Shown here: one piece after another, positions 6,322 to 56,481 of the stretch
Position numbering within the stretch: the first letter of the stretch is position 1
How the letters are laid out: each line of letters opens with the position of its first letter
Program-made: the position numbers and the translations under genes
Assembly: GCA_021778015.1 (NCBI GenBank)
Contig: JAJYCX010000003.1
Coordinates: forward strand, 1-64,000
DNA length: 64,000 nt
DNA from: Pseudomonadota bacterium
Lineage (GTDB): Bacteria > Pseudomonadota > Gammaproteobacteria > UBA1113
Direction of reading: 5' to 3'
The notes under the pieces: model-generated
What the model was told of the DNA's origin: nothing
Database searches by the model: none
Seen by the model: the letters and a program-made list of their open reading frames with translations, nothing else

Positions 6322-6394
6322 AATGTTATAAATTTGCGCTTAACAAGTAACTTTGCGCGCATCTTGATATGTAATGAGTATTATAAGGATAATT

Positions 6395-8821
6395 ATGAAA
6401 CAAATGCTTAGATTATCGTTGATTTCTACTGCGCTATTGACGTGCCTTAGTGTACGTGCTTATGCAGAGGAATCATTTAAGGTCGATAAAATTGAAATAC
6501 AAGGTTTAAAACGTATTAATGAAGGTACTGTATTAAATTATTTGCCTATACAGATTGGGCAAACCATTCAGCCTTCCGATACGGCTAAAATTATACGCGT
6601 ATTATATAAAACAGGCTTTTTCAGCGATGTAACGTTGGATCACAAAGGCAATACTTTGATCGTTAAAGTGGTAGAAAAGCCAACGATCGGCCAATTTAAA
6701 ATCAGTGGTAACAAAAGTATCCCGACTAAAACCTTGCGCAAAACTTTATCTGATTTAGGCTTTGCCGAAGGTCGTGTTTATGATCCTTCTTTATTAAGCA
6801 GCATACGCGATTCCCTGCAGCGCGAATATTATAACCGTGGTAACTATAACGCCACCGTGACTACAAAAGTAACGCATACTTCCAGTAACCGCGTTGACAT
6901 TAATATTAATGTCTTCGAAGGGCCGTTGGCAAAGATCAGTGAGATTTCTATTATAGGCAATCATGCCTTCAAAGAAAAAGAATTGGTCAAACAATTTAGC
7001 TTATCGACTACAGGCATGTTTTCCTTTTTAACGGATAACGATAAATTTTCGCAAGAAAAATTGAATGGCGACTTAGAAACATTGCGTTCATTTTACATGG
7101 ACAGAGGCTATGTGCAATTTAAAGTGGACAGTTCTGAAGTATTGTTGAGCCCGGATAAAAAGAAGGTAACGATCCTAGTTCACATTACAGAAGGGGATAA
7201 ATTCACAGTCAGCGGCTATAAGATGGCCGGGACTTTTGTGGAGCCTAAAGAAAAATTAGAAAGATTTGTACACTTTGAGCCGAATGAAACCTTTAATCGC
7301 AAGAAAATAACCAATATCACCCAAGCCATGAGTAACACCATGGCCAATGACGGTTATGTTTATGCTCACGTAGAACCTTTGCCCGAAGTAGACGCGGCTA
7401 AGAAACAAGTCTTTGTGACTTTCTTAGTGAGTCCGGGTAACCGTTACTATGTGCGCGATATTAATTTCCATGGCAACGACAAAACCGAAGATCAAGTATT
7501 ACGTAGAGAAATGCGTCAACAAGAAGGTGCGCCTTATTCTTTGTCTAAGTCTAAGCAATCTGAAACCCGTTTAAATCGACTAGGTTATTTTAAAACCGTT
7601 AAAGTCGAGAATACTCCGGTCTCGGGCAGTGACGATCAGGTGGATTTAGACTTTACTGTAACTGAAGCACCGTCGGCGACTATGTCCTTAGGCGTAGGGT
7701 ATACCAATACCTTAGGCTTCTTGGTGAATGCGGCTTATTCGCAGCCTAACTTTTTAGGTACAGGTAAAACCATAGGCGCGAATGCAACCGTCGCTTCGGG
7801 ACAGCAAAGTGTGTCTCTTACCTATTTTAATCCTTATTACACCATAGATGGCGTGGGTAGAGGTTTTAGCGCATATGCTAATCACTATAACACTGATCAA
7901 ACCTTGACCGACAGTGTCGCCTATCAAGAGAATAGCTACGGCGCCAATATGTTTTACAATTTTCCTGTGAGCGAGCAAGATACTGTGAGCGCAGGCATAG
8001 GTTATGGGGCAACGTTGTTAAATACAGGGGATAGTGCCAGTGATGCTGTGATTAACTTTATGGATAATTACACTTTAGCTTTGCCTTTGCAACGTAATAG
8101 CAACGAAGTGGCAATCGATCCACTCACGGGCCAACCTATACCGTACCCTACACATGAAAGCATTTATAACATAAATTTAACCACTGCTTGGGGACATAAC
8201 GGTTATGACAGGGCCATTTTCCCTACGCGCGGTTATTCCCATTCGCTCAGTGGCAGTGTGGCATTGCCTGGCGGCGGTACTAGCGTCAGTTATTATAAAT
8301 TAGATTATACGGGCCGTGTGTATCAACCCTTGGGTAAGGGTTTTATAGCCTCGCTGCGTGGTGAAGTGGGTTATGGCGATGGTATTTTCGGTACGCAATA
8401 TTTGCCCTTCTACCAAAACTTTGGTGCGGGTGGTATCGGTGTGCCGGGTGCGGTGCGCGGTTATCAAGGCTTTTCTATAGGTCCTAGAACTATGAATGCC
8501 GATGGCAGCGTAGTGACCGTTGGTGGTAATACCATGACGGTAGGCAGTGTAGAATTAATTGTACCTACACCCTTAACCCCGGACAGTTTCCGAGTAACCA
8601 CTTTTATGGATGCCGGTAATGTCTATAACTGGAATGGCGGTGCGCCTGCCGCTACGACTGACGGTAATGGAAATGGCCCTATACGTTATTCAGCCGGTAT
8701 ACAAGGACAATGGCAGACGCCTATGGGACAAATCATATTCAGCTTGGCTAAACCGATTAATCCACAGCCTAATGATGTGACCGAAGTGTTCCAATTCTCG
8801 GCGGGGACTTCGTTCTTGTAA
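6395..8821 (+). CDS. bamA: Outer membrane protein assembly factor BamA
   Basis: Omp85-family core of the BAM complex that inserts beta-barrels into the outer membrane. The ATG at 6395 (ribosome site AAGGAT) gives 808 residues with a signal peptide ending near VRAYA. Five POTRA domains follow (about residues 25-420, for example FKVDKIEIQGLKRI), then a barrel with the lid-loop motif GAVRGYQGFSIGP (VRGYQ variant of VRGF). The C-terminus reads FQFSAGTSFL, ending in Leu rather than the usual aromatic residue. It is followed by skp and the lpx genes. Confidence 0.96.
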   Translation: MKQMLRLSLISTALLTCLSVRAYAEESFKVDKIEIQGLKRINEGTVLNYLPIQIGQTIQPSDTAKIIRVLYKTGFFSDVTLDHKGNTLIVKVVEKPTIGQFKISGNKSIPTKTLRKTLSDLGFAEGRVYDPSLLSSIRDSLQREYYNRGNYNATVTTKVTHTSSNRVDININVFEGPLAKISEISIIGNHAFKEKELVKQFSLSTTGMFSFLTDNDKFSQEKLNGDLETLRSFYMDRGYVQFKVDSSEVLLSPDKKKVTILVHITEGDKFTVSGYKMAGTFVEPKEKLERFVHFEPNETFNRKKITNITQAMSNTMANDGYVYAHVEPLPEVDAAKKQVFVTFLVSPGNRYYVRDINFHGNDKTEDQVLRREMRQQEGAPYSLSKSKQSETRLNRLGYFKTVKVENTPVSGSDDQVDLDFTVTEAPSATMSLGVGYTNTLGFLVNAAYSQPNFLGTGKTIGANATVASGQQSVSLTYFNPYYTIDGVGRGFSAYANHYNTDQTLTDSVAYQENSYGANMFYNFPVSEQDTVSAGIGYGATLLNTGDSASDAVINFMDNYTLALPLQRNSNEVAIDPLTGQPIPYPTHESIYNINLTTAWGHNGYDRAIFPTRGYSHSLSGSVALPGGGTSVSYYKLDYTGRVYQPLGKGFIASLRGEVGYGDGIFGTQYLPFYQNFGAGGIGVPGAVRGYQGFSIGPRTMNADGSVVTVGGNTMTVGSVELIVPTPLTPDSFRVTTFMDAGNVYNWNGGAPAATTDGNGNGPIRYSAGIQGQWQTPMGQIIFSLAKPINPQPNDVTEVFQFSAGTSFL

Positions 8822-17718: not shown

Positions 17719-17860
17719 AGCTCTTTTCTCCCTCCAGGTGAAACATACGAGACCGCGCAGGCGAAGTGACCGATCGGCCTAGTTAAGGATATATTGCTTT
17801 CAATCTTGAATATGCTAGACTCAATCAGTATTGGGTAAAATCCTGCAAGGAAGCGATGCA

Positions 17861-19090
17861 ATGGTTGATAACAGAAAGTTTAATGTACTTTCCCTTTGTG
17901 GCGGTGGGGTGCGAGGGCTTATAACCGCTGCAATATTAAAGGAAATTGAGCAGAGGCTCATGAGAAAGCTTTCTACTTTCAATGTAAGAATTGCTGATTT
18001 TTATGACTTGATAGCAGGTACTAGTGCAGGAGGATTTTTAACATCTCTTTTATTAGCGCCCTTATCCAGTGAACACAAGACTTTATCTGCTGAAGAAATC
18101 TATCAAATATTTTATGATGCCACGGTTAATATTTTTTTATTGGCTGAACATGGGGAACCACTGAGAGATCCAGAGCTATGCTCAAAAAACATAAATAATA
18201 TATTAAACAAGATATTTGGCAAAATGGAATTAAAAGATTTGCTAAAACCGTCTCTTATTACAGCCTATGAACCTAATCGCGAATGGCTATCTTTCTTTAA
18301 ACAGCACTATGCGCAAAGAGTGCCAGAGTATAACTTTTTCTTAAGCGATGTTGTTGCGGCTACCTTTTCAATGCCCGTTCACTTTAACCCGGTTAAAACA
18401 AGGTCATTTTCTGACAATATTGTAAGGCGAGAATCTTTTTCAAGCATTATATCAAAACCCAAAATCCAAGAAACTCTTTTAGAAGAGCTTGTTAAAAAAA
18501 ATATTGTCAATACGAAAGGAGAGATCTTAATTGAGATGGATTTAAGCTGTCGAGAAAAACTTGGATTATCCTCAGGCTTTACACCACTAGAAAACTATAT
18601 CTATGACATTATTGAGCGTATAGCTAACCCCAAAATGCTTTTTATCGATGGCTCAATGTTTGCTAATTATCCATCTATGTCAGCATTAATTGAAATTCAT
18701 AACATAGCAAATACAAAAAAAAGCAATAAAAATGTAACACTTCTATCTTTAGGAACTGGAATTAACCAAATATATCACGAATATAATGTACAAGATAAAG
18801 ACAAGCTTACATCAAAGTTATTAAATATGTTATTTACAAGCTCAGAAAAACTGAGCCATTTTCAAACCTATATCACCTTTGAAACATCAAAAGCTACTGA
18901 TAACTATATTCATTTGAATCCCGTCATAATGTCATCAGGTCATAGCAATTTACCAACGTACTCTATAAATGATATACGACCAGAAAATATCAAAACATTA
19001 TTATCAATAACAGAAAGCTATATAAAAGCAATTGACCATAAATTAGATGATTATGTTGAGCATCTAATCAAAAATCAATATAGCTCATAA
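17861..19090 (+). CDS. Patatin-like phospholipase
   Basis: Predicted lipid acyl hydrolase with a Ser-Asp dyad, 409 residues. CGGGVRGLI (13-21) is the oxyanion loop, GTSAG (53-57) holds the nucleophile Ser55, AATFSMPVHF (about 166-175) is the structural motif, and IDGSMFANYPS supplies Asp263 (DGS instead of the commoner DGG). An insertion of some 80 residues separates the last two. ATG 17861 has AAGGA 9 bases upstream. No signal peptide; related Legionella VipD-type proteins are secreted effectors, so a host-directed role is plausible but inferred. The reading frame continues past the stop into an ankyrin remnant. Confidence 0.85.
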   Translation: MVDNRKFNVLSLCGGGVRGLITAAILKEIEQRLMRKLSTFNVRIADFYDLIAGTSAGGFLTSLLLAPLSSEHKTLSAEEIYQIFYDATVNIFLLAEHGEPLRDPELCSKNINNILNKIFGKMELKDLLKPSLITAYEPNREWLSFFKQHYAQRVPEYNFFLSDVVAATFSMPVHFNPVKTRSFSDNIVRRESFSSIISKPKIQETLLEELVKKNIVNTKGEILIEMDLSCREKLGLSSGFTPLENYIYDIIERIANPKMLFIDGSMFANYPSMSALIEIHNIANTKKSNKNVTLLSLGTGINQIYHEYNVQDKDKLTSKLLNMLFTSSEKLSHFQTYITFETSKATDNYIHLNPVIMSSGHSNLPTYSINDIRPENIKTLLSITESYIKAIDHKLDDYVEHLIKNQYSS

Positions 19091-20666: not shown

Positions 20667-22265
20667 ATGAAAAATAAACAGCGTCGACAACAAATGGCTG
20701 GATACAAAAAGCAACCCAAACCAAAATATAAAACTCAAGAAATACGCCAGATTGAAGATCTTGCTTTAGAACGAATCTGGCCCACTAATACTTTTGGCCG
20801 TTGGTGGGAAAATTTATCCTCAGCAGAGAAAGCCGTATGGATTTCTTTTGGGATCTCGAGTATCGCTTTTATTCTTTATGTTTACGCGCAAAATCAATCG
20901 ATGGATAGAAATGATTTTTCAGGAAGAATGGTCCCAAGTATTCCGAACGGTAAAGAAAATATTTTACCAGCGGTTATTCCCACCTCCTCTAAAATCTTGT
21001 TCCCCACCTTAAAATCAGAAGCATCTAAGGAAGGGGGGGGCGCATTGCCATTGAAAAATAGCAAGCAAGCACAGCGTTTTTTCAAAGCGCCGGAAAAAAG
21101 AATATTAGATATGGCTCAGCTCCCTGACATTTCATTTATCCCAGACAGTAATCATTTTAAAAAACCTATAACATTAGAGTTACTTACAAGCAAGGTGATA
21201 TTACGTCCGATTCCAGGCCAAGTTATTGATGCGGAGACTAAAGACAGAATAGAGAGCCAAGCTCTAGATCTAATATATATGATAGATGATCTAATCAGGA
21301 CAGATAAAGGTTTTTCGGATGAATTTTCCTTTGTATTTCATCATCCCGATTTTAAAATAGCAGTATCAGATACCCTTAATAATCGAGCACCCTCCGGATT
21401 TTTCAGTAATAATCATCTGGTATTTAATTTAAATCGCCTAGAGAACATTGATTTTATTAGGACTGTTAGGCATGAGGTTCACCATGCAAAAATGGCATTT
21501 ATGAACCATGCCTATCAGCCCATATCGATAGAAACAGGTCGGATCAACTCAATACCATATAACTTATTTATTTCTGAAGATCGTATCTTAAAGCAAGAAT
21601 TTCAACATGCTTTAAAGGAAGATATGAACATTCTTTTAACTAATTTACCGATCCTTATTGCTAAAGAGAGGGCGGGTGAAGTTTTAAGTGGTGAAATGAA
21701 GAAAGATTATCAACTGACTAAAGCTATATTAGAAAAATATTATATACCAAAGTTATCTTATATATACATGCCGATAGAAATGTTTTTAAAAGAACAGTCT
21801 AAAGTTGATGAGAGGATTGCCAAAGAAGATTATCCTTATATGGGTCATTCTACTGTACCTAAAGAGAGTTGGATTTATGTCCGAAATTATTATTTCTATA
21901 AATCTGATGATGGTAAAGAATTTGTAGCGCTCGCAGGAACCCGATTCTCTGATTTAGATAAATTCTTATTGGAGGCTTTTCTAATAGATATTGCTGGTAT
22001 TGAAGAAAATATTATAAATCAAGATATTTATTCTAAGATGCCTCCTTGTGAACAAGATGCTGAGCGGGATGCTATGATCAGCGAATATGGCGTCGAAATG
22101 ATGCAACTTTTGTTCCCTCGATTAACTGCATTCCATAAAAAGAAGTTTCAAATTTTTGAAGATACGATGGAGCAGTTAAGGCGTAATAGAGATACATTTA
22201 TTTCAACTGAAACAAATAGTAATTCCGACAGTGTTCAGAGAGACGCGTCAAGTTTGAGGAAATAA
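20667..22265 (+). CDS. Membrane-anchored putative zinc metalloprotease (HEVHH)
   Basis: A 532-residue protein with a basic N-terminus, a single hydrophobic segment (about 57-74, VWISFGISSIAFILYVYA) and a large C-terminal domain. RTVRHEVHHAK places an HExxH zinc motif at 269-273, after a beta strand and Asn-rich turn as in zincins. A downstream acidic helix (about 460-480, EQDAERDAMISEYGVEM) could give a third ligand. No family is recognised. The basic N-terminus suggests the catalytic part lies outside the cytoplasm. It follows the 292-residue gene by 55 bases, possibly one unit. Confidence 0.65.
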   Translation: MKNKQRRQQMAGYKKQPKPKYKTQEIRQIEDLALERIWPTNTFGRWWENLSSAEKAVWISFGISSIAFILYVYAQNQSMDRNDFSGRMVPSIPNGKENILPAVIPTSSKILFPTLKSEASKEGGGALPLKNSKQAQRFFKAPEKRILDMAQLPDISFIPDSNHFKKPITLELLTSKVILRPIPGQVIDAETKDRIESQALDLIYMIDDLIRTDKGFSDEFSFVFHHPDFKIAVSDTLNNRAPSGFFSNNHLVFNLNRLENIDFIRTVRHEVHHAKMAFMNHAYQPISIETGRINSIPYNLFISEDRILKQEFQHALKEDMNILLTNLPILIAKERAGEVLSGEMKKDYQLTKAILEKYYIPKLSYIYMPIEMFLKEQSKVDERIAKEDYPYMGHSTVPKESWIYVRNYYFYKSDDGKEFVALAGTRFSDLDKFLLEAFLIDIAGIEENIINQDIYSKMPPCEQDAERDAMISEYGVEMMQLLFPRLTAFHKKKFQIFEDTMEQLRRNRDTFISTETNSNSDSVQRDASSLRK

Positions 22266-36154: not shown

Positions 36155-36943
36155 TTATACAACTTTCTCGCTGTTATCTTCCCACGGCAAATGGTGGTAT
36201 AAGGCGTTTTCTGACAAAGTGAAAATAGGGTATTTGATAATTTGAAAGAAAGGCGAGTAGTCGAAATCTTTAGGGGTGTAAAGCCTAGAATTTCCAGGTG
36301 CTATCTGAATGTTTTGATCGGAACTTTGTTTGATAATGGGCAAAATAGGAAATTGTACGGAGCGAAAAGCCTCTGCAATTAAAGTAGAACAAATTTGTCG
36401 GGTAGAGGAGCTGTCCTCAGAGAATAGGGAAGAACGCCAATGCCTAGGAAAAAATTTCCAGGGTAAGAAAAAACGCGCTAAGTCTAGAGTTTGTCGCACG
36501 TCATATTGATAGCCCAAACGCTCAACAGCATAAGCAATAACATTTTGTGCATCTGCTTTAGAAATGCCATTAGGTCTACAAATACGTATATGCTCCATTT
36601 TGTATTTTGCTAAAGGCGAAACAATGGTTCCGCAGCCTAATAAACTTTCTATTACCAGTTGTTCTGTGGGTTCACCATCATAATACTCTTTTATTTTTTG
36701 GCGCAGAATGGGGTGTTCTATATCGTGCAAACGGCCTATGTACAATACTGCATGTGACCACGGGCTTTGGGTGATGCTTTTGGTAAAGTCGCTGATGCGA
36801 GACCTACCTTCGACCAATAGTACATCCGCAGGCCTGATTTCATAGGACAACTTATCAAAGTCACAGATGGGCACGTTAGTCCGTGGTTTTTCGTGCATTA
36901 AATAGGCAGTAATCGACTTTTGTAAGCGTTCAAATAATTTCAC
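36155..36943 (-). CDS. YiiX-type permuted NlpC/P60 cysteine hydrolase
   Basis: A 262-residue member of the circularly permuted papain-like fold family (YiiX/YebB). His64 in SPWSHAVLYIG and Cys185 in RQICSTLIAEAF are the expected catalytic pair in permuted order, with Glu99 (VIES) nearby. Substrates in this family are mostly unknown; peptide, amide or lipid esters have been suggested. GTG start with AAGGTG upstream, no signal peptide. It heads a two-gene operon with malic enzyme. Confidence 0.75.
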   Translation of the reverse strand: MKLFERLQKSITAYLMHEKPRTNVPICDFDKLSYEIRPADVLLVEGRSRISDFTKSITQSPWSHAVLYIGRLHDIEHPILRQKIKEYYDGEPTEQLVIESLLGCGTIVSPLAKYKMEHIRICRPNGISKADAQNVIAYAVERLGYQYDVRQTLDLARFFLPWKFFPRHWRSSLFSEDSSSTRQICSTLIAEAFRSVQFPILPIIKQSSDQNIQIAPGNSRLYTPKDFDYSPFFQIIKYPIFTLSENALYHHLPWEDNSEKVV

Positions 36944-37216: not shown

Positions 37217-38107
37217 ATGTTTCACGGCAGTTTAGTTGCCTTAGTCACTCCCATGGACGAAGAGAGCAATATTGATTACACCAGTTTGGAAAAATTAATC
37301 GCTTTTCATATAGAGCAAAAAAGCGATGGTTTGGTCATTGCTGGTACAACCGGTGAAGGCGCAACGCTTACTGATGAAGAAATTAATAAATTAATTCATT
37401 TTGTAGTGCGTAAAGTCGATTCCCGTATTCCAGTTATTGCGGGCACGGGCGCCAATAGCACACATAAAACCATAGACAAGACCTTCAATGCTATGGAAAT
37501 GGGTGTAGACGGCTGCCTGCTAATGACGCCAGCCTATATTAGACCGACTCAAGAAGGTTTATACCAACACTTTAAGGCCATCAGTGAAGCGGTTCCGGTG
37601 CCACAAATTTTGTACAATGTTCCTACCCGTACTGCTTGCGATATGTTACCTGAAACGGTGGCAAGATTGGCCGATTGCAGTAATATCATCGGCATTAAAG
37701 AAGCGGTACACGATAGAGCGCGCTATCTGCAATTAATTGAATTATGCGGTTCACGCTTGAGCATTTTGAGCGGTGATGATAGCAGCTGTAAAGACTTAAT
37801 GCTGGCTGGCGGTAAAGGCGTTATTTCAGTGACCGCCAATGTGGCACCTAGGCTAATGCACGATATGGCCGAGGCAGCATTGCAGGGTAATAAAGCTAAA
37901 GCCGATGAGTTAGATAATAAAATGCAAGCATTGCATCATGCTTTGGGTGTACAAACTAATCCTATACCCGTGAAATGGGCTGTGCATCAGCTGAAATTAA
38001 TCCGTGCTGGCATACGTTTACCGTTAACGGTGCTTTCCAAAGAGCATCATAATACTGTTTTACAGGCTATGCAGGAAGCTGGCATAAAGGAAGAAATGAA
38101 TGAATAA
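37217..38107 (+). CDS. dapA: 4-hydroxy-tetrahydrodipicolinate synthase
   Basis: Condenses pyruvate with aspartate semialdehyde, first step of the lysine and meso-diaminopimelate branch needed for peptidoglycan. The 296-residue product has the substrate motif AGTTGEGATLTDEE, the Tyr motif YNVPTRTA and the Schiff-base Lys in IIGIKEAVHD (about residue 160). It overlaps the bamC-like gene by 8 bases. Confidence 0.96.
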   Translation: MFHGSLVALVTPMDEESNIDYTSLEKLIAFHIEQKSDGLVIAGTTGEGATLTDEEINKLIHFVVRKVDSRIPVIAGTGANSTHKTIDKTFNAMEMGVDGCLLMTPAYIRPTQEGLYQHFKAISEAVPVPQILYNVPTRTACDMLPETVARLADCSNIIGIKEAVHDRARYLQLIELCGSRLSILSGDDSSCKDLMLAGGKGVISVTANVAPRLMHDMAEAALQGNKAKADELDNKMQALHHALGVQTNPIPVKWAVHQLKLIRAGIRLPLTVLSKEHHNTVLQAMQEAGIKEEMNE

Positions 38108-38483
38108 AAAAATGAAATTAGGGGCGCTTTTCCTACTGAGCAGCATACTATTGGGCTGTAGCGTAGAAGGCAAAAACGATTATGGTAGTTATTATCAAAA
38201 ACAAGAAAGTTTAAACGTTCTTAAAATGCCGCCTGGAGTGAGCGCACAAGGAGCCGATAATTATTATGTAGTGCCCGCTGGGCCTATGGCTGATGTCAAG
38301 ACCATTTCTATTTTGCCTCCAGGTAGCCGTGCTTATCAATCGGCTGTGGCTAAACAAAATGCTAAAACTGCGACTACAACGCCTGCCCCAGCCGTTACCA
38401 CAACGGCACCAGCTGTTACTAGCACACCAGCCGTTATCAATGACAATAGCCCTGATAAGACTGTAGGAGCAGATAAGCAATGA
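38100..38483 (+). CDS. bamC: Short BamC-like lipoprotein (N-terminal region only)
   Basis: Sits exactly where bamC (nlpB) sits in E. coli, between dapA and purC. The 127 residues have a lipoprotein signal ending LLGCS (Cys20) and then the BamC N-terminal lasso pattern: LNVLKMPPGVS, NYYVVPAG and ISILPPGSRAY. In E. coli BamC (344 residues) this part binds BamD. Both helix-grip domains are missing; instead a Thr/Ala/Pro tail ends the protein. The stop overlaps the purC start (ATGA). Confidence 0.75.
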   Translation: MNKKMKLGALFLLSSILLGCSVEGKNDYGSYYQKQESLNVLKMPPGVSAQGADNYYVVPAGPMADVKTISILPPGSRAYQSAVAKQNAKTATTTPAPAVTTTAPAVTSTPAVINDNSPDKTVGADKQ

Positions 38484-39184
38484 CCGAATGTCTAGAGCTT
38501 TATAAGGGCAAATCCAAGACGATATACGATATAGGTGAGCCTAATGAATTGTTGGTTCAATTTCGCAATGATGCCACTGGAGGCAATGGAGCAAAGCACG
38601 CTATTTTAGAGGACAAAGGTCGCGTTAATTGCGCTTTTGATGCTTTCATCATGGCTGTGTTGGCGGAAAATGGTATAAAAACACATTGGCTAAAAAGTGT
38701 AAGTGATACTGAAATACGGGTGCGACGTTTAAACATGTTGCCTATAGAATGTGTCCTGCGCAATAGAGCCGCGGGCGGCATCTGCAAACGTCTGGGCATT
38801 GAGCGGGGCAGAATCTTCTCGCCGCCTGTATTTGAATTTTTCTTGAAAAATGATGCTTTGGGCGATCCTATCATCACCGAAGATCATATATTCATGCTAA
38901 AATTAGCCAGCAAAGAAGATCTGGCTGCCATGAGAGCATTGACCTATCGTGTTAATGACATTTTACAACCCGTATTTGCCAAGGCAGGCTTTGATTTAGT
39001 CGACTTCAAATTGGAATTTGGGTATTATCAGGGACAATTGCTATTGGGTGATGAATTTACTTTAGATGGCTGCCGTTTATGGGACAAACAAAGCGGTGAA
39101 ATTTATGATAAAGATCGTTTCCGCCAGGATTTAGGAGATGTAATACATTTCTATAAAGAAGCGGCAAAACGTTTGGGGATATGA
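38480..39184 (+). CDS. purC: Phosphoribosylaminoimidazole-succinocarboxamide synthase
   Basis: SAICAR synthetase of purine synthesis, 234 residues. Typical segments: LYKGKSKTIYDIG at the N-terminus, VQFRNDATGGNGAKHA, and DFKLEFGYYQGQLLLGDEFT with the metal-binding acids. The stop codon is immediately followed by part of repeat C. Confidence 0.96.
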   Translation: MTECLELYKGKSKTIYDIGEPNELLVQFRNDATGGNGAKHAILEDKGRVNCAFDAFIMAVLAENGIKTHWLKSVSDTEIRVRRLNMLPIECVLRNRAAGGICKRLGIERGRIFSPPVFEFFLKNDALGDPIITEDHIFMLKLASKEDLAAMRALTYRVNDILQPVFAKAGFDLVDFKLEFGYYQGQLLLGDEFTLDGCRLWDKQSGEIYDKDRFRQDLGDVIHFYKEAAKRLGI

Positions 39185-39187
39185 AAG

Positions 39188-39351
39188 AAGTCAACAAAGC
39201 CTAAAGGTCAAATGCGAAGAATATATATTCACAGCAGTTGATTTTTAGGCGAGGCGACGAGCTCGCGAGCACCAGGAGTGTAGTATTCTACATGACTGGG
39301 GCGAGATGGGCGAAGTCAACAAAGCCTAAAGGTCAAATGCGAAGAATATTT
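39188..39351. repeat. Repeat family C, partial plus complete copy
   Basis: 39188-39223 is a truncated copy (AGTCAACAAAGCCTAAAGGT and on), followed at 39224-39351 by a complete unit starting TATATTCACAGCAGTTGATT and ending with the same 3' part. Inside, CCAG and CTGG flank a stem-loop TGTAG-tatt-CTACA. Same family as 60261-60389 and the window start. It separates purC from the tRNA. Confidence 0.85.
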
Positions 39352-39354
39352 ATC

Positions 39355-55593: not shown

Positions 55594-56481
55594 ATGAAAT
55601 ACTGTAAATTACTTTATATCGCTCTAGGCTCTATCCTAGCCATCTCTGCTTACGCGGCACCTATAGTCCAGGGTCAACCTGAAAATATGAATTCATATCC
55701 TGTGGCACAGAACAATGGCCAGCAAGCAGCGGCAATGCAAGTGGAGAGCAGTGCGAATGAACCCGCCGATTTAGTCAATACGGTTACGCAATTGCAACAA
55801 CAAGTCCGCGGCTTACAAGGACAATTAGAAGTCCAAGCGCATCAAATAGATCAACTCACACAAGCACAAAAAAATATTTATTTACAATTAGAAAACAAAT
55901 CGCCCGCTAATTCAGCCATAAACGGCGCTGCAGCGGCGTTAACGACGGCAACGGTGGCGACAGCAACTACGCCTAAAAATAATGATGGTGTCAGTGTTAA
56001 ACCTAACGCCACAATGAGTACAGCAAGCACTAAAGCAGCATCCGCAACTGCCGCTGGTACTACGGCTGCCGCAACTACAACCAGCAGTACTGACGACAAA
56101 CAAAAAGCCATTTATGATGGCGCTTATGAATTAATTACCAAGCAACAATACAGCGATGCCAGTGTAGGCATGAGCAATTATTTAAGCCAATACCCCAAGG
56201 GTGATTATGCTGCCAATGCGCATTATTGGTTGGGTGAAATAGGTTTAGTCGGCGGTGATTTAAACAGTGCACAAACGCACTTTCAAGCCGTAGTGACGCA
56301 ATTTCCCAGTAGTCCTAAGATAGCGGACGCACAATTGAAGTTGGGTTATATCTACTATCAACAAGGCAAATGGGCTGAAGCGCGCCAAACCTTGGAATCT
56401 TTAATAAAACAACACCCCAATACTTCAGCAGCAACATTGGCTACACAACGCTTGCAAGATATGACTCAGCAAGGAGTGTAA
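55594..56481 (+). CDS. cpoB: Cell division coordinator CpoB
   Basis: Periplasmic TPR protein that ties Tol-Pal to peptidoglycan synthesis. The ATG at 55594 starts a signal peptide, MKYCKLLYIALGSILAISAY to A; the longer frame from 55531 is repeat-derived. The 295 residues contain a coiled coil (LVNTVTQLQQQVRGLQGQLE, about 50-100), an Ala/Thr-rich linker and three TPRs beginning KAIYDGAYELITKQQYSDAS. Confidence 0.92.
   Translation: MKYCKLLYIALGSILAISAYAAPIVQGQPENMNSYPVAQNNGQQAAAMQVESSANEPADLVNTVTQLQQQVRGLQGQLEVQAHQIDQLTQAQKNIYLQLENKSPANSAINGAAAALTTATVATATTPKNNDGVSVKPNATMSTASTKAASATAAGTTAAATTTSSTDDKQKAIYDGAYELITKQQYSDASVGMSNYLSQYPKGDYAANAHYWLGEIGLVGGDLNSAQTHFQAVVTQFPSSPKIADAQLKLGYIYYQQGKWAEARQTLESLIKQHPNTSAATLATQRLQDMTQQGV

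What the first reader, a model, noticed from the sequence alone, without database searches (positions are those of the whole stretch)
38100..38483. BamC reduced to its BamD-binding lasso
The gene sits in the dapA-bamC-purC position and keeps the lipobox and the PPGV...YYVVP...LPPGS pattern of the BamC N-terminus, yet is only 127 residues long with a Thr/Ala/Pro tail. Both folded domains are lost while the reading frame and overlaps are intact, so this looks like a functional minimal BamC.
Basis: partly seen in the sequence, partly recalled or inferred. Interest (0 to 1): 0.7.

Follow-up and report, generated by a model that had tools for sequence, protein, structure and literature searches.

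The report
BamC stripped to its BamD-binding arm
The gene between dapA and purC encodes a short protein that is likely the outer-membrane assembly factor BamC reduced to the flexible arm predicted to clasp its partner BamD; similarly short, likely related proteins sit beside dapA in 31 bacterial families, which would make them natural tests of which part of BamC matters.

Summary
The ORF at 38100-38483 is real: 127 codons, overlapping dapA by 8 bp and purC by 4 bp, lipobox at Cys20. Its mature N-terminus matches a profile of 29 domain-bearing BamC N-termini (18.6 bits; 0 of 9,000 shuffles and 0 of 189 other lipobox ORFs reach that). PF06804 is above its cut-off in none of the 11 genomes held for the order; all 11 have a short ORF beside dapA. 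The lasso core is under strong constraint (dN/dS 0.04-0.09), the tail much less (0.23-0.66). AlphaFold2 shows no folded domain. An rpoB+rpoC tree puts domain-bearing BamC at the root with 9-15 reductions; loss-only models win in five of six comparisons. BamD binding is inferred: no complex could be modelled, and BamD was not found in the window's own assembly (84% complete), though 9 of 11 family genomes have it. UniRef already labels some Legionella members BamC. A widespread variant of a known subunit; I found no description in print.

The parts
37217..38107 (+). dapA, 4-hydroxy-tetrahydrodipicolinate synthase; upstream neighbour
   Evidence: PF00701 E 1.7e-93; overlaps the next ORF by 8 bp
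38100..38483 (+). lasso-only bamC, 127 aa including signal peptide
   Evidence: ORF; 27 homologues; 18.6 bits on an HMM of BamC N-termini; same gene order as E. coli dapA-bamC-purC
38100..38159 (+). signal peptide and lipobox, ending in Cys20 (predicted lipid anchor; Ser at the next position)
   Evidence: read from the sequence; Cys20 invariant in 27 of 27 aligned family members
38157..38327 (+). lasso core Cys20-Ser76: YYQKQ..L..LKMPPGV....DNYYVVP....VKTISILPPGS
   Evidence: aligns with BamC N-termini; dN/dS 0.04-0.09 in four comparisons, a fifth saturated
38328..38480 (+). variable tail Arg77-Gln127 in place of the two helix-grip domains; predicted helix at 77-91, then Thr/Ala/Pro-rich
   Evidence: length and sequence vary between relatives; dN/dS 0.23-0.66 in five comparisons; AlphaFold2 helix 77-91, most of 94-127 under pLDDT 50
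38480..39184 (+). purC, SAICAR synthetase; downstream neighbour
   Evidence: PF01259 E 1.6e-72, TIGR00081 over its cut-off
6374..8821 (+). bamA with five POTRA stretches: core of the BAM complex this protein is expected to join
   Evidence: POTRA 5 stretches and Omp85 E 1.4e-64

Best explanation
The ORF is likely an orthologue of BamC that has lost both helix-grip domains and would act as a lipid-anchored peptide clasp on BamD. Shown by calls: position between dapA and purC, lipobox, a conserved 57-residue segment whose profile matches the BamC N-terminus (E. coli residues 37-89), no BamC domain found elsewhere in the genome or order, strong purifying selection on that segment, and no predicted fold in the protein. 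Inferred: after export and lipidation at Cys20 the chain would run along the BamD TPR face as the E. coli lasso does, occupy the pocket proposed to receive unfolded outer-membrane proteins, and help hold BamD on BamA. The variable tail would only trail into the periplasm. The functions proposed for the helix-grip domains (contact with POTRA domains, coupling to the chaperone SurA, surface exposure) would be absent or carried by other proteins here.
For: Gene order as in E. coli. The window protein scores 18.6 bits on an HMM of 29 BamC N-termini, with 0 of 189 unrelated lipobox ORFs above 3.6. hhalign, pairwise: window family against 16 BamC N-termini, probability 91.6, E 8.2e-7; a class-wide lasso-only set A3 of 18 trimmed proteins, 97.5, E 5e-12. 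A PDB search with A3 returns 12 BamC sequences as its 12 best hits (E 4e-10 to 0.1; the next, dihydropyrimidinase, is at 1.2), matching residues 37-89 of E. coli BamC; A3 was hand-picked from lasso-like proteins, so this tests the class form more than the window. Pfam's BamC model is the only family hit by more than one A3 member, in 14 of 18, all weak. PF06804 above its cut-off in 0 of 11 genomes of the order. dN/dS core 0.04-0.09, tail 0.23-0.66. BamA in the window; BamD over its cut-off in 9 of 11 family genomes. The E. coli lasso contacts BamD extensively and its residues 32-85 look alike in all but one BAM structure compared (PMC5056442, passages); a review says it fills BamD's presumed substrate pocket (PMC4890855, passages).
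Against: No contact with BamD was modelled or measured. The window protein alone hits neither Pfam nor the PDB; the PDB search with its own family profile A1 finds no BamC (one lipoprotein at E 1.1), and only 3 of 27 A1 members hit the Pfam model. Two family members, G006 and G008, score only 5.4 and 6.7 bits. BamD was not found in the window's own genome (83.6% complete) nor, at E 1e-5, in G009. The block PMADVKT before SILPPGS is nearly invariant in this genus but not in the other genera of the family and could serve an additional partner.
Confidence: 0.78

Rival explanations
1. It is an unrelated small lipoprotein that replaced BamC in the dapA-purC position and resembles the lasso by convergence, as a proline-rich membrane-proximal peptide might.
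For: The single sequence has no Pfam or PDB hit; the family profile A1 fails to find BamC in the PDB; the profile matches rest on 34 and 44 columns.
Against: Same position, the same order of motifs with similar spacing through to the closing PP, HMM score beyond every null, and longer forms after dapA that carry a lasso and hit PF06804 only in its later part (G014, G017).
Confidence: 0.12
2. It is a decaying remnant of bamC on the way to loss, kept only by translational coupling between dapA and purC.
For: The ORF overlaps both neighbours; deletion of bamC has a mild phenotype in E. coli (PMC13067283, passages).
Against: dN/dS of the core is 0.04-0.09 while the tail is freer to change; 24 aligned sequences share 28 invariant residues, 26 of them between Cys20 and Ser76; a short form is present in all 11 genomes of the order.
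Confidence: 0.04
3. Lasso-only is the ancestral state of BamC, as in alphaproteobacterial BamF, and the helix-grip domains were added later in some lineages.
For: BamF shares the N-terminal motif without helix-grip domains, and a common ancestor X was left open by Anwari 2012 (PMC3359395, parts 1-4 of 7 read). On the quick tree with all taxa the gain-only model is slightly better (lnL -41.75 against -42.99).
Against: Fitch puts domains at the root in six of six versions. On the full tree loss-only is better with all taxa (-36.26 against -40.67), without long branches (-28.35 against -37.16), without weak calls (-34.50 against -36.26) and without both (-26.91 against -32.92). The quick tree without both also favours loss (-29.19 against -33.60).
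Confidence: 0.12

Closest known systems
BamC (NlpB, Pfam PF06804) of Escherichia coli
   Same: Gene order dapA-bamC-purC; lipoprotein; N-terminal lasso with the motifs Y, L-x-x-P-x-G, Y-x-[IV]-P and the closing PP.
   Different: E. coli BamC has two helix-grip domains after the lasso (344 aa against 127); here a variable unstructured tail stands in their place. No PF06804 match for the window protein.
BamF of Caulobacter and other Alphaproteobacteria (DUF3035)
   Same: A lipoprotein of BAM with a disordered N-terminus carrying a BamC-like motif and no helix-grip domain (PMC3359395).
   Different: Different genomic position (next to the signal peptidase II gene), different C-terminal part, reported only from Alphaproteobacteria; no DUF3035 among the Pfam hits here.
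70-78-aa proteins of Legionella, some labelled Outer membrane protein assembly factor BamC by UniRef
   Same: Short lipoproteins with the lasso and closing PP; in the three family f42 genomes surveyed (G051, G191, G297) they follow dapA.
   Different: Little or no tail; the G191 protein is 25% identical to the window's core. The label shows that the short form is already named in a database, without a description that I found.

Membership tests
BamC | Position between dapA and purC | tested here: met
BamC | Lipoprotein signal and lipobox cysteine | tested here: met
   read from the sequence; Cys20 invariant in 27 of 27; no lipoprotein predictor was run
BamC | N-terminal BamD-binding lasso sequence | tested here: met
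   18.6 bits, 0 of 9,000 shuffles and 0 of 189 ORFs; hhalign; PDB profile search met with A3 but not with A1
BamC | Two helix-grip domains | tested here: not met
   Length; no PF06804 match; no fold in AlphaFold2
BamC | PF06804 above curated cut-off | tested here: not met
   window 0 families; 14 of 18 lasso-only proteins hit it, best E 0.0039; so I file it as a reduced orthologue, not as a full member
BamC | Binding to BamD within BAM | not testable with these tools
   no complex prediction on offer
BamF | DUF3035 domain | tested here: not met
   no such hit; whether this Pfam copy still uses that name was not checked
BamF | Gene next to lspA, in Alphaproteobacteria | tested here: not met
   locus is dapA-purC; records of two genus relatives are titled Gammaproteobacteria bacterium

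The most novel reading that the evidence does not exclude
The lasso, not the helix-grip domains, is the part of BamC that selection keeps: in at least 31 families bamC is cut to a BamF-like clasp of about 40-130 mature residues, by repeated independent reductions, so a sizeable unannotated share of Gammaproteobacteria runs BAM without BamC domains and without their proposed SurA-coupled gate.
Probability: 0.55. Interest if true: 0.72.

Novelty: new variant of a known kind. Interest (0 to 1): 0.6.

Why it matters
[quoted passage not shown] If lasso-only forms are functional, nature has separated the two halves of BamC many times, which makes directly testable whether clasping BamD is its core job and whether the helix-grip domains are an optional gate. 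It would also explain part of the genomes in which the BamC family model finds nothing.

Tried and rejected
Full BamC elsewhere: PF06804 found nothing in G000 at E <= 10 and nothing above the cut-off in the 11 genomes of the order; three weak hits (G007 and G004 at C-terminal profile positions, E 0.04 and 0.08; G001's own short gene, E 0.2) were not followed further. The YfiO hit at 56077-56442 lies in the ORF after a pal-like ORF; I take it for CpoB (name recalled, from no call), not BamD. BamD residue that pairs with BamC's C-terminal domain in one published state: Asp29 of E. coli aligns with Gly in 8 of 8 family BamDs (G006, the ninth, was dropped by my motif filter), but the alignment has a gap there, so it is inconclusive; Tyr62 is kept in 8 of 8. 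In the window's BamA, Arg162 is kept and Arg160 is Ser. AlphaFold2 on the single chain says nothing about binding (mean pLDDT 52 and 57). Promoter and terminator scan: 9 promoter-like sites against 6.0 expected, 0 terminators. Naming of relatives through genome contigs gave only three MAG records.

Limits of the survey: 137 handles had no PF06804 hit (a few of them lie outside the 369). 129 of these were searched for dapA (the other 8 are G000-G007, read); 105 of 129 had it; 100 loci were read (five genomes of the second set, and a second dapA copy of G022, were not fetched). Outcome: 44 lasso-only (two of them, G009 and G010, from the window's family), 12 longer with a lasso, 23 weak or not lasso, 17 no candidate, 4 cut by contig ends. 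Several of the 23 look lasso-like by eye. The 9.5-bit rule is the 99.9% point of the shuffles.

Limits of the tree: rpoB was found in 66 of 80 genomes asked; four with only pieces were dropped, so 62 are in it, with 8 of the outgroup genomes. None of the four genomes asked from the window's own genus gave rpoB, so the genus is represented only by five other genera of its family. Five weak cases (G008, G035, G113, G127, G176) and the weak G006 were labelled lasso-only by eye; one search repeats the counts without them. G014, G017 and G037, which hit only a late part of PF06804, were counted as domain-bearing. Genomes were picked to hold both states in similar numbers.

Full report
What is there. 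The window carries dapA (37217-38107), a 127-codon ORF (38100-38483) and purC (38480-39184) in one direction, overlapping by 8 and 4 bp. E. coli has the order dapA-bamC-purC. The ORF has a signal peptide ending in LLGC (Cys20), a segment Cys20-Ser76 with YYQKQ, LKMPPGV, DNYYVVP and SILPPGS, and a Thr/Ala/Pro tail. It hits no Pfam family on its own and no PDB chain at E <= 10.

Is it BamC? I built an HMM from 75-residue mature N-termini of 29 domain-bearing BamC proteins: 27 of 30 loci (three gave no usable start), E. coli, and G013. It scores the window's mature protein at 18.6 bits. Of 9,000 residue shuffles of 45 short proteins none reaches this (maximum 17.3), and of 189 lipobox ORFs in 740 kb of other DNA none exceeds 3.6. 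hhalign, run pairwise, of the window's family profile (A1, 27 proteins) against 16 of the BamC N-termini gives probability 91.6 and E 8.2e-7; a class-wide lasso-only set (A3, 18 proteins chosen and trimmed by me) gives 97.5 and E 5e-12. A PDB search with A3 returns 12 BamC sequences as its best 12 hits, E 4e-10 to 0.1, with the next hit at 1.2; in E. coli BamC the match is residues 37-89. Pfam's BamC model is hit weakly by 14 of 18 of these proteins, best E 0.0039, and no other family by more than one. Against this: A1 alone finds no BamC in the PDB, only 3 of its 27 members hit the Pfam model, and family members G006 and G008 score only 5.4 and 6.7 bits.

What is missing. The segment ends at SILPPGS, aligned with the LDIRPP of E. 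coli BamC, which by my count from its Cys25 is residues 80-85; the published lasso is residues 32-85 (PMC5056442, figure legend passage). What follows in E. coli is two helix-grip domains. Here there is a tail of 51 residues; tails vary in length between relatives. AlphaFold2 gives mean pLDDT 52 from the single sequence and 57 with 24 sequences, with a helix at 77-91 after the lasso and no fold. PF06804 finds nothing in the window's genome (83.6% complete, 50 contigs) and nothing above its cut-off in the 11 genomes held for the order, which is one family. All 11 have a short ORF by dapA: G000-G007 and G009, G008 and G010.

Is it kept? Between the window gene and its orthologues in G004, G003, G005 and G001, dN/dS of the core (57 codons) is 0.039, 0.050, 0.083 and 0.089; against G002 it cannot be computed (saturated). 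For the tail it is 0.338, 0.447, 0.230, 0.527 and, against G002 over 19 codons, 0.657. The signal peptide is also freer (0.24-0.79 in the three that can be computed). Synonymous sites are near saturation in all but the G004 comparison, so the values are approximate, but the contrast between core and tail is large.

How it likely works. BamA with five POTRA stretches is in the window. BamD is above its cut-off in 9 of 11 genomes of the family; the two without are G000 and G009. The E. coli lasso makes extensive contact with BamD while the folded domains are mobile and often unseen, and the crystal structure of the pair, as described in a review, shows it in the presumed substrate pocket of BamD (PMC4890855, passages; the original paper is not held). 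I infer that the short form does the same. [quoted passage not shown] that coupling would be absent here. In E. coli deletion of bamC is mild, though BamC stimulated assembly by BamADE in vitro (PMC11130730, passages).

How common is it? In a sample of 369 genomes of the class, 237 have PF06804 at E <= 0.001. I read the DNA after dapA in 100 genomes without such a hit. With a strict rule (lasso HMM >= 9.5 bits, mature length <= 135, closed ORF) 44 are lasso-only, in 31 family codes, mature length 39-127, median 72.5; two of the 44 belong to the window's family. Twelve are longer with a lasso, 23 weak or unrelated, 17 without candidate, 4 at contig ends. One family is Legionella by homology: the 70-aa protein of L126 finds 57 homologues, the best named one 96% identical and from Legionella bozemanae, several called Outer membrane protein assembly factor BamC by UniRef. 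So the label exists, and the novelty is in seeing what these proteins lack, how often, and how that arose.

How did it arise? A tree of RpoB and RpoC (2,758 columns, 62 genomes and 8 outgroup genomes) with 27 lasso-only and 35 domain-bearing genomes needs 11 changes, against a mean of 20.4 and a minimum of 13 in 1,000 label shuffles. Fitch puts domains at the root in six of six combinations of tree and taxon set, and loss-only beats gain-only in five of six; the exception is the quick tree with all taxa (-42.99 against -41.75). Loss-only counts range from 9 to 15. The window's genus is not in the tree, because rpoB was not found in the four genomes asked. Its family, by five other genera, falls in a group of lasso-only families with Legionella's family f42 and three more (support 77.8/80), inside a larger well supported group (99.2/100) that also holds G014 and G037, which hit only a late part of PF06804. 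Within genus g33, G037 has such a 203-residue frame and G182 only the lasso; I did not read the N-terminus of G037. The genomes were picked to hold both states in similar numbers, so rates are not natural frequencies.

What is known. [quoted passage not shown] it judged independent origin most parsimonious and left a common ancestor open. I found no description of lasso-only BamC in eight library searches (listings seen, and passages of PMC5056442, PMC13067283, PMC11130730, PMC11970506 and PMC4890855). Subscription journals are mostly not held, so this is not proof of absence.

Verdict. The reading as a minimal BamC is well supported as to ancestry and selection, and inferred as to function. 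It is a recurrent form rather than an oddity.

Noticed in passing
39175-39228 and 39300-39353: A 54-bp direct repeat (89% identical, 125 bp apart) overlaps the end of purC and lies before tRNA-Ser; an ORF made of repeats lies at the same place in L002, 2172-2450.
   Followed up: partly
17831-19090: ORF with a patatin-like phospholipase domain (PF01734, E 5.4e-13).
   Followed up: partly
36155-36943: ORF on the minus strand with a C92 permuted papain-like amidase domain, YaeF/YiiX family (PF05708, E 6.1e-8), next to dapA.
   Followed up: no
20667-22265: 532-aa ORF without any Pfam family at E 0.001.
   Followed up: no
L242 (G037), L133 (G182), L265 (G289): Three genomes of one genus differ: a 203-residue frame matching only the late part of PF06804, a lasso-only gene, and no candidate after dapA.
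   Followed up: partly
G000, G001, G002, G004: No rpoB match at E 1e-100 in the four genomes of the window's genus that were asked, one of them 96% complete; 10 of the other 76 genomes asked also lacked one, so a search or data limit is as likely as biology.
   Followed up: no
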